NCBI RefSeq assembly: GCF_001940235.1
Contig: NZ_MJIE01000001.1
Span: 434,001-498,000, forward strand
Length of the DNA: 64,000 nucleotides
Reading direction: 5' to 3'
Source of the DNA: Hornefia porci
GTDB lineage: Bacteria; Bacillota; Clostridia; Peptostreptococcales; Anaerovoracaceae
Below the pieces are notes generated by a model. It had not been told where the DNA came from, made no database searches, and worked only from the letters and a program-made list of their open reading frames with translations. A program made the translations under genes and the position numbers. Numbering within the stretch: the first letter of the stretch is position 1; each line of letters opens with the position of its first letter. This document shows, piece after piece, positions 25,768 through 35,951 of the stretch.

Positions 25768-25863
25768 TTATCCAAAAAGTCCTTTCAGAAGCGGCACCAG
25801 CACCGTACCGATCAGGGCGACTCCGCCGCCTGCCATGAACTGCTTGATCCCCTGGCTTTTTGC
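25768..25863 (-). pseudogene. maff2: maff2 pilin gene, 3' fragment (split by IME)
   Basis: The last 31 codons of a Maff2-family T4SS pilin (reading KSQGIKQFMAGGGVALIGT and VLVPLLKGLFG before the stop at 25768-25770). The family is a small two-helix membrane protein equivalent to the VirB2/TrbC pilin. The 5' part is at 35811-35951 on the same strand. Joining 35951-35824 to 25861-25768 gives 222 bases, an intact 73-codon frame plus stop, through NPGANAKSQGIKQ. Confidence 0.93.
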
Positions 25864-25880
25864 TGATGTGCGATAAAGAA
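25864..25880 (+). repeat. IME left end inverted repeat (att site)
   Basis: TGATGTGCGATAAAGAA reads inward from the GC at 25862-25863. It pairs with TCATGTGTCGTAAAGAA at the other end. Confidence 0.85.
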
Positions 25881-25894
25881 GTAATAGAAGTGTA

Positions 25895-25942
25895 AAAAAT
25901 TTTGCCGTTCCTATCCGGCACTTGGCCATTGTGTCGGATAGG
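25895..25942 (-). terminator. terminator after the serine recombinase
   Basis: Arms CCTATCCGGCAC (25910-25921) and GTGTCGGATAGG (25931-25942) pair at 11 of 12 positions. On the minus strand the hairpin is followed by AACGGCAAAATTTTTTAC. Confidence 0.75.
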
Positions 25943-25949
25943 TCGGGCG

Positions 25950-27569
25950 TTAGGCTTCGGGCAAGTCAATTTTGCCGACAAAGCTGTAATAAATCTCAAT
26001 GTCCTGCCTGCGGGTGCCGTTCTCGTCATAGCTGCACTCATGCACGACGATTTTCTCAATCATTTCCCGCAAGAGGGTGGGTGTCAATTCCTCAAAGGCA
26101 AGGTGCTTGCGGACAATCCCCATGAATTTCTCGGCGTTAACGGTGGCCGCCTGCGACTTGTCCAGTTCCGCCTGCAATGCGGCGGTGCGGTCTTTCAGTT
26201 CCCGCTGCTCCTGCTCATAGTCTGCCGACAGTTCCATGAAACGCTCGTCGCTGATTTTGCCGTTCACATTGTCCTCATACAGCCGCTTGATAATGCGGCT
26301 CACTTCGGCAATCCGCTCCTGCGCCTGTTCAAGCTGCTTGGTGGCTGCGGCGGTCTTTCTCTTGCCGCCGATTTCGTTCTGCTGGATCAGCAGCTTTACA
26401 AAACGGCTCTCGTGCCTGGCAGCATACTCCGTCACTTGCCGGAGATTGGAGAGGACACCGGCGGTCAGCAGGTCGGTGCGGATAAAGTGCGCCGTACAGT
26501 CGCGGGTGCGCTTCTTGTAGCTGCCGCAGATGTAACAGTCCTGCTTGCGGTTCTTGTTCTGATACCGCTGCTGGTACATCACATGGCCGCAGTCGGCGCA
26601 GAACAGCATACCAGAGAACAGCCCCACTTCGTCATAGCGGTTCGGGCGTTTGCGCTGCTTGCGTAACTCCTGCACACGCTCCCATGTTTCCGTGTCAATA
26701 ATCGGCTCATGGTGGTTCTCAAAAATGGCCTGCTTCTCAATGGGATTTTCTACGCTGTGCTTGGTCTTGTAAGAGGGCTTTTCCGTCTTGAAGTTTACCA
26801 GACAGCCGGTGTACTCCCGGTTTTCGAGGATATGAACGACGGTGTTCGTCGCCCATTTACACTCATAGCCGGGGTGGTAGCGGCGTGTGCTGCCTGTCCT
26901 GCGGTATTCCAGCGTCCCCGGCGTGGGGATTTGCTGTTCCGTCAGCATACGGGCAATCTTGGTCGGGCCGTTCCCCGCAAGGCAAAGCTGGTAAATCTGC
27001 TGGACAACCGGCGCGGTTTCCTCGTCAACGATATAGTTCTCGTCCTCGTCCATGAGGTAGCCATACACCGGCTTGCTGGTAACGGGCTTGCCGCTCATGC
27101 CTTTTGCTCTTTTAACTGCCTTGATTTTCTTGCTCGTATCTCTCACCAGCCATTCGTTGAACAGATTTCGCAGAGGGGTAAAATCATTGTCCATGCCGCC
27201 GTTTGCGCTGTCCACATTGTCGTTGACAGCGATAAAACGCACGCCCTTTTGAGGGAACAGCATTTCCGTGTAAAACCCTACCTGCAAGTAGTTTCGCCCT
27301 AACCGGCTCATGTCCTTGACAATGACCGTACCAACTTTCCCGGCTTCAATGTCCGCAAGCATGGCTTGAAATCCGGGCCGCTGGAAGTTCGCGCCGGAAT
27401 AACCGTCGTCGGTGTACCAGCGCAGATTGGTAAAGCCGTTCTGTTTTGCGTAGGTTTCGAGTATCCTTTTTTGGTTCGATATGGAATTACTCTCGCCTTG
27501 CAGCTCGTCCTCATGGGACAATCTCGGATAAAGGGCGGTAATGAGGTTTTGGGTGGCTTGTCTTAACAT
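25950..27569 (-). CDS. large serine recombinase (TnpX-like, DUF4368)
   Basis: A 539-residue site-specific recombinase. The resolvase domain covers about residues 8-150: the catalytic serine is in LYPRLSHEDE; YTDDGYSGANFQRPGFQ, VGTVIVKDMSRLGRNYLQVG and the E-helix follow. The recombinase domain has KPVYGYLMDEDENYIVDEET. The zinc-ribbon-like part has FCADCGHVMY and CYICGSYKKRTRDC. A coiled-coil region (KQLEQAQERIAEVSRIIKRL) and a C-terminal DUF4368-like segment close it. It integrates and excises the IME at a GC dinucleotide. It is the leftmost gene of the element, 86 bases from the left end, as expected. Confidence 0.95.
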   Translation of the reverse strand: MLRQATQNLITALYPRLSHEDELQGESNSISNQKRILETYAKQNGFTNLRWYTDDGYSGANFQRPGFQAMLADIEAGKVGTVIVKDMSRLGRNYLQVGFYTEMLFPQKGVRFIAVNDNVDSANGGMDNDFTPLRNLFNEWLVRDTSKKIKAVKRAKGMSGKPVTSKPVYGYLMDEDENYIVDEETAPVVQQIYQLCLAGNGPTKIARMLTEQQIPTPGTLEYRRTGSTRRYHPGYECKWATNTVVHILENREYTGCLVNFKTEKPSYKTKHSVENPIEKQAIFENHHEPIIDTETWERVQELRKQRKRPNRYDEVGLFSGMLFCADCGHVMYQQRYQNKNRKQDCYICGSYKKRTRDCTAHFIRTDLLTAGVLSNLRQVTEYAARHESRFVKLLIQQNEIGGKRKTAAATKQLEQAQERIAEVSRIIKRLYEDNVNGKISDERFMELSADYEQEQRELKDRTAALQAELDKSQAATVNAEKFMGIVRKHLAFEELTPTLLREMIEKIVVHECSYDENGTRRQDIEIYYSFVGKIDLPEA

Positions 27570-27589
27570 AAAATCCTCCGTTTCCGACA

Positions 27590-27643
27590 GCCAGCCCCAC
27601 TATTCCGTGGTTTCATTGTACCACGGAACAGCGGGGGCTGTAC
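27590..27643. other. strong stem-loop between recombinase and tnpW
   Basis: The inner stem is TTCCGTGGT (27603-27611) / ACCACGGAA (27620-27628), and the outer stem is AGCCCC (27593-27598) / GGGGCT (27634-27639). On the minus strand it lies in the leader of the recombinase gene. It may act as an attenuator or mRNA element controlling recombinase expression; a run of T is absent. Confidence 0.55.
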
Positions 27644-27680
27644 AGCGGCAAAAGCGTTAAATTTGCTTCTTTACAGTCGG

Positions 27681-34372: not shown

Positions 34373-34538
34373 TATAACCTCTCCTTAAAGGTAAGCGCCT
34401 AATATAAGGGTATCTGTTCGCTTGGTCATATATTTGCCATAATAGTAGTAATCACATATGCCAGCATTTTACTCTATGATCCGGCGCTAGGATCTAGCAG
34501 TAAGCAAGCATTTTACTACAATTATGGAGGTTACATTT

Positions 34539-34955
34539 ATGCAGACAGAAAGACGAACTGCCGATGAGCAATACCGGCTCATCATGGAATGTCGCAGCAG
34601 CGGACTAAGCGATTTTCAGTGGTGCAACGAGCACGGGATCAAACCCGGTACATTCTACAACTGGGTCAAGCGGCTTCGCAAAAAATCCTGCTATGATATT
34701 CCGCCGGCAACAGGCCGGGGAGGCTATAAGCCTTCGGAACAACAGGATGTTGTCAAACTTGAAATCGTTGACCAGCCTGTTCTGCACGAAGAGACACCAC
34801 AGCTTTTAAGCGTGCTTCCGGATCATACGGATACAAACTGTATGGAAGCAACTGCTGAGATCAAACTCGGCTCCGCCCTGATCAGGATTTCAAATGATAT
34901 AGATCCGGCACTTTTAGCACAGATCATCCGGTCTGTGGGAGGTGCATCATGCTAG
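34539..34955 (+). CDS. tnpA: IS66 family accessory protein TnpA
   Basis: A 138-residue protein with an N-terminal HTH (EQYRLIMECRSSGLSDFQWC then NEHGIKPGTFYNWVKRLRKK). It is the first of three IS66 genes and overlaps tnpB by seven bases. Start ATG 34539 follows GGAGG. Confidence 0.9.
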   Translation: MQTERRTADEQYRLIMECRSSGLSDFQWCNEHGIKPGTFYNWVKRLRKKSCYDIPPATGRGGYKPSEQQDVVKLEIVDQPVLHEETPQLLSVLPDHTDTNCMEATAEIKLGSALIRISNDIDPALLAQIIRSVGGASC

Positions 34956-35296
34956 GCGACATTACAGCTGCAACAGATATTTATATCATTTGTGGCTACA
35001 CCGATATGAGAAAATCAATCGATGGTCTGTGCGCCATCATCAGAGACCAGCTTCACTTTGAACCGGAGCATACCACCGCGCTCTACCTTTTCTGCGGCAG
35101 ACGCAATGACAGGATAAAGGCACTCCTTCATGAGAATGACGGTTTTGTGCTTTTATATAAACGCCTCGATCATAACACCGGAAAATACCGGTGGCCACGT
35201 AACCGTGACGAGGTGAAAACCATTACATGGAGGCAGTTTGACTGGCTCATGTCCGGTCTTGAGATCGAGCAGCCAAAGGCAATAAAAAGTGCCTGA
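34949..35296 (+). CDS. tnpB: IS66 family accessory protein TnpB
   Basis: A 115-residue IS66 Orf2 protein with the diagnostic CGYTDMRKSIDGLCAIIRDQ near the N-terminus, then LYLFCGRRNDRIKALLHEND and WRQFDWLMSGLEI. It looks complete. It is needed with TnpC for transposition, but tnpC is truncated. Confidence 0.95.
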   Translation: MLGDITAATDIYIICGYTDMRKSIDGLCAIIRDQLHFEPEHTTALYLFCGRRNDRIKALLHENDGFVLLYKRLDHNTGKYRWPRNRDEVKTITWRQFDWLMSGLEIEQPKAIKSA

Positions 35297-35369
35297 AACG
35301 CTTGATTTTTCTAGGCTTTTGCACCTGTTTATGGTACAATAGAAGTATCAAAAAACGGAGCAGAAGACC

Positions 35370-35731
35370 ATGCCTTCAGGAGTAAAAGATATCCAGCTCT
35401 TAGAGCTTAAGGATACAATCTCACAACTGAATAAAACAATCAGCACTCAGAACGAACTCATAAGTTCATTGCAGAAGATGCTGGAAGAACGCAATGCGAA
35501 GGACAGTGAAAAAGACCTTCTGATCGCGAATCTCCAGTCTCAGCTTGCGTATCTTAAGAACAAGGTCTTTGGCTCAACCAGTGAAATACGCCATGACCAG
35601 CTGGACGGACAGCTGAATCTGTTCGGTACACCCGTCGGTGATGAAAAGCCTGCGGAAGTGATCGAACCGGAAGTGATCAGCGTCAAGGGGTATACCAAAG
35701 AGCGGAAACCCAAGGCAACCTATGATGACAA
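35370..35731 (+). pseudogene. tnpC: IS66 transposase TnpC, 5' fragment
   Basis: The first 120 codons of the IS66 transposase: a coiled-coil N-terminus (LELKDTISQLNKTISTQNEL) and the start of the conserved region (AYLKNKVFGSTSEI, KERKPKATYDDKY). Sequence similarity stops at about 35731; the frame runs on to 35921 through unrelated IME end and maff2 sequence. The DDE catalytic domain is missing, so the insertion sequence is immobile. Confidence 0.9.
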
Positions 35732-35806
35732 GTATAACTCTGTGCGCTCCATTTGTAAACATTTTTTTACGGATATAGTAGGACTGTCTATCAAATTTTT
35801 CTGTGT

Positions 35807-35823
35807 TTCTTTACGACACATGA
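35807..35823 (-). repeat. IME right end inverted repeat (att site)
   Basis: On the minus strand TCATGTGTCGTAAAGAA follows GC (35825-35824) and pairs with the left end repeat. Confidence 0.85.
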
Positions 35824-35951
35824 GCATTGGCACCTGGGTTGTCCGATCCGTATCCCTCCAAAAGGTTGATGATGCCCCAGATACCGAGGCCCGCGCCCAG
35901 CGCAATGACAAGGGTCTGTAATACGCCGACTGCACTGTTGAAAAACGCCAT
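35811..35951 (-). pseudogene. maff2: maff2 pilin gene, 5' fragment (split by IME)
   Basis: The first 42 codons of the Maff2 pilin, including a first transmembrane helix (VGVLQTLVIALGAGLGIWGI) and EGYGSDNPGANA. After the insertion point the frame reads HVS and stops at 35811. Start ATG 35951 follows AAAGGAG. A truncated 46-residue product lacks the second helix and the conserved GGG segment encoded by 25768-25863. Confidence 0.93.

What the first reader, a model, noticed from the sequence alone, without database searches (positions are those of the whole stretch)
25768..35951. IME inserted inside the T4SS pilin gene maff2, restoring a perfect frame on removal
The two ends of one pilin gene lie 10 kb apart on the same strand. 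Joining them at a shared GC (35824-35825 and 25862-25863) gives exactly 222 bases, a 73-codon frame plus stop, so this is a clean integration and not decay. While inserted, the outer ICE should lack its pilin subunit; excision would restore the channel, which both elements need for transfer. The IME may thus act as a switch for its host element. Targeting of ICE genes including maff2 by IMEs has been described in streptococci (from memory), so the novelty lies in the specific pairing and its consequence.
Basis: partly seen in the sequence, partly recalled or inferred. Interest (0 to 1): 0.8.

Follow-up and report, generated by a model that had tools for sequence, protein, structure and literature searches.

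The report
Resistance hitchhiker splitting a conjugation gene
A small mobile element carrying an erythromycin-type resistance gene sits cleanly inside a small transfer gene (maff2) of a larger mobile element; this is a recognised way of life for such hitchhikers, here with an unusual cargo.

Summary
A 10-kb integrative and mobilizable element (IME) splits maff2 of a conjugative element (ICE). Its twin in Flavonifractor sp. AGMB03687 differs at one base between 25859 and 35828; the other 38 differences lie in the maff2 flanks. Intact relatives have 70-71 residues, not 73. Of 82 related elements, 78 have a readable right flank and 53 of these sit in maff2.

The mobile backbone is 99.9% identical to Tet-carrying elements that match the published IME_Rho_tet type, but the cargo is erm(G) plus an IS66 fragment. 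The genome's only other detected maff2 is split at the same codon by a Tet-carrying sister.

The 'switch' idea was printed in 2017, and ICESp2905 reportedly moved whole with an IME in maff2. 'Pilin' is unproven. Known in kind; the cargo and the double occupancy are the new parts. One step (joining the maff2 pieces) was referred.

The parts
35827..35951 (-). maff2, N-terminal piece (residues 1-41 and the AA core shared with the other end); reading runs on into the element as N-A-H-V-S and a stop
   Evidence: Pfam Maff2 1-43/70; ORF end; edge
25768..25860 (-). maff2, C-terminal piece (from codon 42, with the other copy of the AA core)
   Evidence: Maff2 profile 40-70
25861..35826 (-). the IME proper, between the two AA cores
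   Evidence: L016 differs from the window at one base (30182) between 25859 and 35828, and at 38 bases in the flanks
35806..35826 (-). left inverted end of the IME; brings an in-frame stop into maff2
25861..25881 (-). right inverted end of the IME
25894..25942 (-). hairpin followed by a T run behind the recombinase; terminator-like
   Evidence: present in 82 of 82 elements; two covarying pairs, both from L062/L063
25950..27569 (-). large serine recombinase (Resolvase, Recombinase, Zn ribbon, DUF4368)
27681..27974 (-). TnpW-like small protein
   Evidence: PF14202 30.5 bits, cut-off 25
27884..28747 (-). DnaC/IstB-like ATPase
28723..29514 (-). replisome organiser, N-terminal type
   Evidence: PF09681, TIGR01714
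29588..30163 (-). ORF with cysteine-rich VLP domain; overlaps the relaxase end, so its start is uncertain
   Evidence: PF14194
29964..31598 (-). relaxase, MobA/VirD2 type
   Evidence: PF03432
31561..32154 (-). NikA/MobC-type accessory protein
   Evidence: PF21983 43.8 bits, cut-off 27
32631..33110 (-). protein weakly like 6-O-methylguanine DNA methyltransferase DNA-binding domain
   Evidence: PF01035 26.6 bits, just under its cut-off of 27
33215..33460 (-). HTH_16 protein
   Evidence: PF12645
33638..34372 (-). erm(G), 23S rRNA methyltransferase (macrolide resistance), cargo
   Evidence: NF045543 559.8 bits, cut-off 515
34524..35735 (+). IS66 remnant: tnpA-like, tnpB, and a cut-short tnpC
   Evidence: PF05717, PF13007 above cut-off; PF01527 just below
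24879..25748 (-). host ICE: VirB6-like gene right behind maff2
   Evidence: PF19478 TrbL_2 164.5 bits
21564..23963 (-). host ICE: VirB4, CD1110 family
   Evidence: NF045971
37166..38938 (-). host ICE: VirD4, CD1115 family, upstream of maff2
   Evidence: NF045973

Best explanation
An IME with an IME_Rho_tet-type mobile backbone, but with erm(G) in place of a tet gene, was inserted by its own large serine recombinase at a two-base AA core in codon 42 of maff2, just after the turn of the predicted helical hairpin. Shown by comparison: the element's edges, the AA core, one orientation, the same IME in two different ICEs, and exchange of cargo on a near-identical backbone. Inferred: while in place, Maff2 ends after residue 41 plus five foreign residues, and a terminator-like hairpin in front of virB6 may also weaken transcription of the T4SS genes behind it, so the host ICE is probably impaired until the IME leaves; the IME then uses its own relaxase and some T4SS in the cell, and docks in a maff2 in the recipient. 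It is mainly a hitchhiker that lives in ICEs; switching of the ICE would be a by-product.
For: Two maff2 pieces. One difference in 9,970 bases against L016, 38 in the flanks, while the VirD4 region of the two ICEs is only 65% identical. Right flank in maff2 in 53 of 78, elsewhere in 25. Core AA/AA in 45 of 46 elements with a left end in view; no reversed insertion flagged. Backbone 25859-32112 is 99.94% and 99.97% identical to L019 and L018, which carry a Tet protein. N-A-H-V-R/S-stop at the left end in 10 of 10 further maff2 insertions read and in the window. Hairpin in 82 of 82. Predicted Maff2 hairpin H2-36/H39-70, mean pLDDT 90.
Against: No reads or bench data show excision or transfer. 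Exceptions to the AA core: L032 (AA/TA) and L062 (right AG, no left end in view); L036 ends before the site. ICESp2905 was reported to transfer whole with an IME in maff2 (PMC5704250), and in S. suis an ICE moved with an IME that did not excise from SNF2 (PMC7168690, passages), so impairment of the ICE is not certain. Covariation of the hairpin rests on what is probably one event, and one control measure (further pair types) is not above shuffles. The scan found 32 terminator-like sites in this region against 19 expected, so such sites are common here.
Confidence: 0.88

Rival explanations
1. maff2 is dispensable: the insertion is close to neutral for the ICE, which carries the IME along in cis; there is no lock and no switch.
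For: ICESp2905 was reported to transfer whole with an IME in a maff2-related gene (PMC5704250 section 13). In S. suis an ICE with an IME in SNF2 transferred although the IME was not seen to excise (PMC7168690 passages). In this genome both detected maff2 genes are split.
Against: maff2 is intact in 86 of the maff2 matches sorted, is strongly conserved and lies between virD4 and virB6; 30 of the 32 N-terminal pieces with both flanks in maff2 look undecayed by eye, L054 and L066 do not.
Confidence: 0.4
2. The IME is a pirate that blocks its host ICE for good and moves only with another element's T4SS.
For: The same IME is found in two different ICEs, so it moves apart from any one ICE; the genome has four CD1110-family VirB4 genes, two of them in systems without a detected Maff2.
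Against: Permanent blocks should leave decayed maff2 pieces; of 40 full-type C-terminal pieces none shows an early stop, one of them cut by its contig end. Recent insertion would explain this as well.
Confidence: 0.2
3. Misassembly or chance neighbourhood of two unrelated maff2 fragments.
For: The genome holds two related IMEs, which can mislead assemblers.
Against: The same IME sits at the same codon in another genome; 32 elements show both pieces; the two IMEs of this genome differ clearly, e.g. 84-85% over the longer aligned stretches; the contig is 2.80 Mb long.
Confidence: 0.02

Closest known systems
IME_Rho_tet (PMC12904643, 2026; abstract, first part of Results, and passages read)
   Same: Relaxase, MobC and serine recombinase in one direction; 3' edge 81-90 bp behind the recombinase (here 89 bp from stop to core); inverted ends; MAFF2 genes as main target (paper: 116 of 256)
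   Different: Cargo is erm(G) with an IS66 remnant, not a tetracycline ribosomal protection gene; the paper's main text has no occurrence of 'erm'; its search required a Tet(W)-like protein
Streptococcal IMEs in maff2: IME_ScoC232_maff2_site1 and IMESp2907 (PMC5357655, PMC5704250; passages and sections read)
   Same: Serine-recombinase IMEs in an inner site of a maff2-related gene of an ICE; replisome organiser and, for site 1, DnaC genes
   Different: Streptococcal hosts and Tn5252-type ICEs; I did not compare their sequences or sites with this one
IMEs in other ICE genes: traG/VirD4, snf2, PPI (PMC5357655, PMC7168690; passages)
   Same: A mobilizable element docks in a conserved gene of its carrier ICE
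   Different: Other target genes; here maff2
Serine-recombinase prophages whose excision returns a split host gene (mentioned in PMC5357655 section 25; details recalled)
   Same: A split gene that can be regained by excision
   Different: Here the split gene belongs to another mobile element, and regulated excision is not shown

Membership tests
IME (as defined in PMC5357655) | Complete integrase gene | tested here: met
   Full-length serine recombinase 25950-27569, all four domains above cut-off
IME (as defined in PMC5357655) | Complete relaxase gene | tested here: met
   PF03432 over its cut-off; the 544-aa protein is colinear with relatives
IME (as defined in PMC5357655) | Direct repeats at both ends | tested here: met
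   Only the two-base AA core, shared in 45 of 46 elements
IME (as defined in PMC5357655) | No VirB4 or other T4SS gene inside | tested here: met
   The ORFs inside that were scanned match none; VirB4 hits of the genome lie outside
IME (as defined in PMC5357655) | Excises and is mobilised | not testable with these tools
   Needs reads or mating data
IME_Rho_tet (PMC12904643) | Recombinase at least 85% similar to the R. hominis A2-183 reference | tested here: inconclusive
   Reference not held; the recombinase is 100% identical to copies in R. hominis An869 (L017) and others
IME_Rho_tet (PMC12904643) | 3' edge 81-90 bp behind the recombinase stop, inverted ends | tested here: met
   89 bp; inverted ends; the paper's logo was not seen
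IME_Rho_tet (PMC12904643) | Carries a tetracycline ribosomal protection gene | tested here: not met
   erm(G) instead. So it is filed as a cargo variant on this backbone, not as IME_Rho_tet itself
VirB2-type T4SS pilin (for Maff2) | Two-helix membrane hairpin of pilin size | tested here: met
   H2-36 and H39-70, mean pLDDT 90; not specific to pilins
VirB2-type T4SS pilin (for Maff2) | Sequence or fold homology to a pilin family | tested here: inconclusive
   T4SS_pilin matches 6 of 19 Maff2 proteins, best E 0.0026; the one score seen is under the cut-off (16.7 against 26.6); a DUF unrelated to pilins, UPF0154, matches as many; no Foldseek match at E <= 0.001

The most novel reading that the evidence does not exclude
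One short stretch of maff2, around codons 39-51 at the turn of its predicted hairpin, is a shared docking site for at least three kinds of element: this IME family, a MobA/MobL-type IME slightly downstream, and group II introns slightly upstream. The IMEs act as locks: each brings an in-frame stop and a terminator-like hairpin into the T4SS operon, and in this genome both Maff2-bearing ICEs are locked at once; introns, which splice out of the RNA, would occupy the site while leaving the gene usable and so could shield it from IMEs.
Probability: 0.2. Interest if true: 0.6.

Novelty: new variant of a known kind. Interest (0 to 1): 0.36.

Why it matters
It adds macrolide resistance (erm(G)) to the cargo of a backbone described in print for tetracycline resistance; in the named loci with a left end in view, 12 of 44 showed no Tet protein between the ends, so a Tet-based survey misses part of the family. 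It also makes a printed but untested question (does an IME in maff2 silence its carrier ICE?) easier to test: exact ends, a conserved in-frame stop, a conserved terminator-like hairpin, and a genome in which both detected maff2 genes are occupied.

Tried and rejected

Dropped before counts: 4 of 82 right flanks (contig ends); 36 of 82 loci without a left end in view. In the Maff2 census (overlapping with 296, 393 and 391 genomes; rows sorted) 17 partial, diverged or contig-end matches were set aside. Its 13 N pieces ending at position 42-43 are: the window, 10 with this IME's left end read directly, one whose other end looks like an intron insertion (G514:C13:186974), and one not resolved (G514:C13:339144). 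The 13 shortened C pieces include L018 and the decayed L054; downstream ORFs were listed for four (L016, L021, L047, L050). The hairpin pair count used 11 of 82 sequences, chosen to cover its variants.
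Full report
What is there. On the minus strand maff2 begins at 35951 and is broken by a 10-kb insert; its other piece lies at 25768-25860, right in front of a VirB6-like gene. Apart from an IS66 remnant on the plus strand, the annotated genes of the insert run in the direction of the T4SS genes: erm(G), an HTH_16 protein, a weakly matched DNA-binding protein, NikA/MobC, relaxase, a cysteine-rich VLP protein, replisome organiser, DnaC-like ATPase, TnpW and a large serine recombinase. 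The outer ICE has VirB4, VirD4 and CD1108-type proteins of the CD1110/CD1115 type.

Where exactly it is cut. The best yardstick is L016, Flavonifractor sp. AGMB03687: over 10,121 aligned bases it differs from the window at 39 places, and only one of them (30182) lies between 25859 and 35828; the other 38 are in the maff2 flanks. Related elements show the same edges: a shared AA at 25859-25860 and 35827-35828, with the neighbouring arms forming an imperfect inverted repeat. Of 46 elements with a left end in view, 45 have AA at both ends and one (L032) AA/TA; L062 has AG at its right end, its left end is not in view. Sixteen intact Maff2 proteins read from relatives do not have the two residues that the GC reading would add.

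How general it is. The recombinase search in named genomes returned the best 80 of 564 relatives; with the window and the second copy in its own genome these are 82. Of 78 readable right flanks, 53 are maff2 (40 with a full-type C piece, 13 with a shortened one) and 25 are not. Of 46 with a left end in view, 32 have maff2 on both sides, 13 on neither, and one (L035) runs off its contig. No insertion in the opposite direction was flagged. In a census over overlapping sets of 296, 393 and 391 anonymous genomes, 92 genomes had a match; the rows sort into 86 intact maff2 genes and 13 N pieces ending at position 42-43, besides intron-like and downstream-site splits. Of the 13, 11 are this element type (the window, and 10).

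The host genome. It is unnamed. It has two detected maff2 genes, both split at this codon. The second insert (L013) has a recombinase 97% identical to the window's and a 639-aa protein above the cut-off of the TetM/TetW/TetO/TetS model. Four VirB4 genes of the CD1110 family exceed the cut-off, so two further systems have no detected Maff2.

Cargo exchange. Window 25859-32112 is 99.94% identical to L019 (Faecalibacterium prausnitzii CNCM I-4541) and 99.97% to L018 (Pseudobutyrivibrio xylanivorans MZ8); beyond 32112 only two short stretches match. L018 and L019 carry a Tet protein 97% identical to that of L013 (L019 above the model's cut-off). Of the 80 named loci, 1 (L016) has an erm match; of 44 with a left end in view, 32 have a Tet protein between the ends and 12 do not.

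How it likely works. One orientation and a non-palindromic two-base core fit a large serine recombinase; that DUF4368 recombinases of the Tn4451/Tn5397 kind both insert and excise is recalled, not tested. In the window and in 10 of 10 further maff2 insertions read, the left end runs on as N-A-H-V-S or N-A-H-V-R and a stop, so only the first of the two predicted helices (H2-36, H39-70) is kept. Behind the recombinase a hairpin with a T run is found in 82 of 82 elements; in 11 chosen variants two pairs change on both sides, both in L062 and L063, probably one event, and one control measure is not above shuffles. If it terminates transcription, it would also separate virB6 and the genes behind it from upstream promoters. 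Impairment of the carrier ICE is therefore likely but not shown.

What is already in print. IMEs in maff2, and the idea that induction of conjugation may trigger their excision, appear in PMC5357655 (passages and section 25 read) and PMC5704250 (passages and section 13 read). The latter reports for ICESp2905 transfer of the IME alone, of the ICE without that IME, and of the whole with both IMEs. PMC7168690 (passages) reports transfer of an ICE with an IME in SNF2 that did not excise. PMC12904643 (abstract, first part of Results, passages) describes the backbone family with tet genes, with 116 of 256 integration sites in MAFF2 genes. PMC12857230 (passages) says VirB2 and VirB5 subunits are not found in Gram-positive T4SSs with one exception.

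Verdict. A real, clean and recurrent insertion. It is known in kind; new are the erm(G) cargo on this backbone, as far as the searches above reach, and the occupation of both detected maff2 genes of one genome. The switch remains a hypothesis with evidence on both sides.

Noticed in passing
L013 (own genome C1:2400001-2420000), about 5447-17460: A second ICE of the same genome has its maff2 split at the same codon by a related IME that carries a Tet ribosomal protection protein.
   Followed up: yes
L146 (G065) 3770-6520 and L147 (G428): Group II introns (Rfam RF02004 and RF00029; a long reverse-transcriptase-like frame in L146) interrupt maff2 about ten bases upstream of the IME site. Six census matches have this shape; two were checked with Rfam.
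   Followed up: partly
L016, L021, L047, L050 about 11735 onward; L145: A different IME sits in the same maff2 gene slightly downstream, in four loci directly behind this IME: MobA/MobL relaxase in L021, a second serine recombinase 38% identical over 353 residues in L050, ORFs. In L145 (G059) it sits there alone.
   Followed up: partly
L228 4696-4914: Another T4SS of the genome has a 72-aa hydrophobic protein between VirD4-like and large downstream genes, the position of maff2, with no clear sequence match to Maff2.
   Followed up: partly
L032 (Oxalobacter paraformigenes HOxBLS, NZ_KI392031.1): A 98% identical recombinase on a 1.8-Mb contig labelled as a proteobacterium, inserted outside maff2 with unequal cores AA/TA; host range beyond Bacillota or a contamination question.
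   Followed up: no
L164 9050-10807 (own genome C1:427050-428807): A further DUF4368 serine recombinase, 48% identical to the IME's, just outside the window; possibly the ICE's own integrase.
   Followed up: no
window 41825-43360: An rlmD/rumA-like gene (name by eye, recalled) with a long C-terminal extension lies at the end of the ICE; rumA is a known ICE integration gene (PMC5357655).
   Followed up: no
window 36262-36963: An HTH (XRE/RstR-like, below cut-off) regulator gene lies between virD4 and maff2; DNA like it (about 78%) occurs alone in other genomes such as G551 and G647.
   Followed up: no
alignment A1, e.g. P0001, P0002, P0004: Some metagenomic Maff2 proteins show internal duplications; single records, so assembly artefacts are likely.
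   Followed up: no
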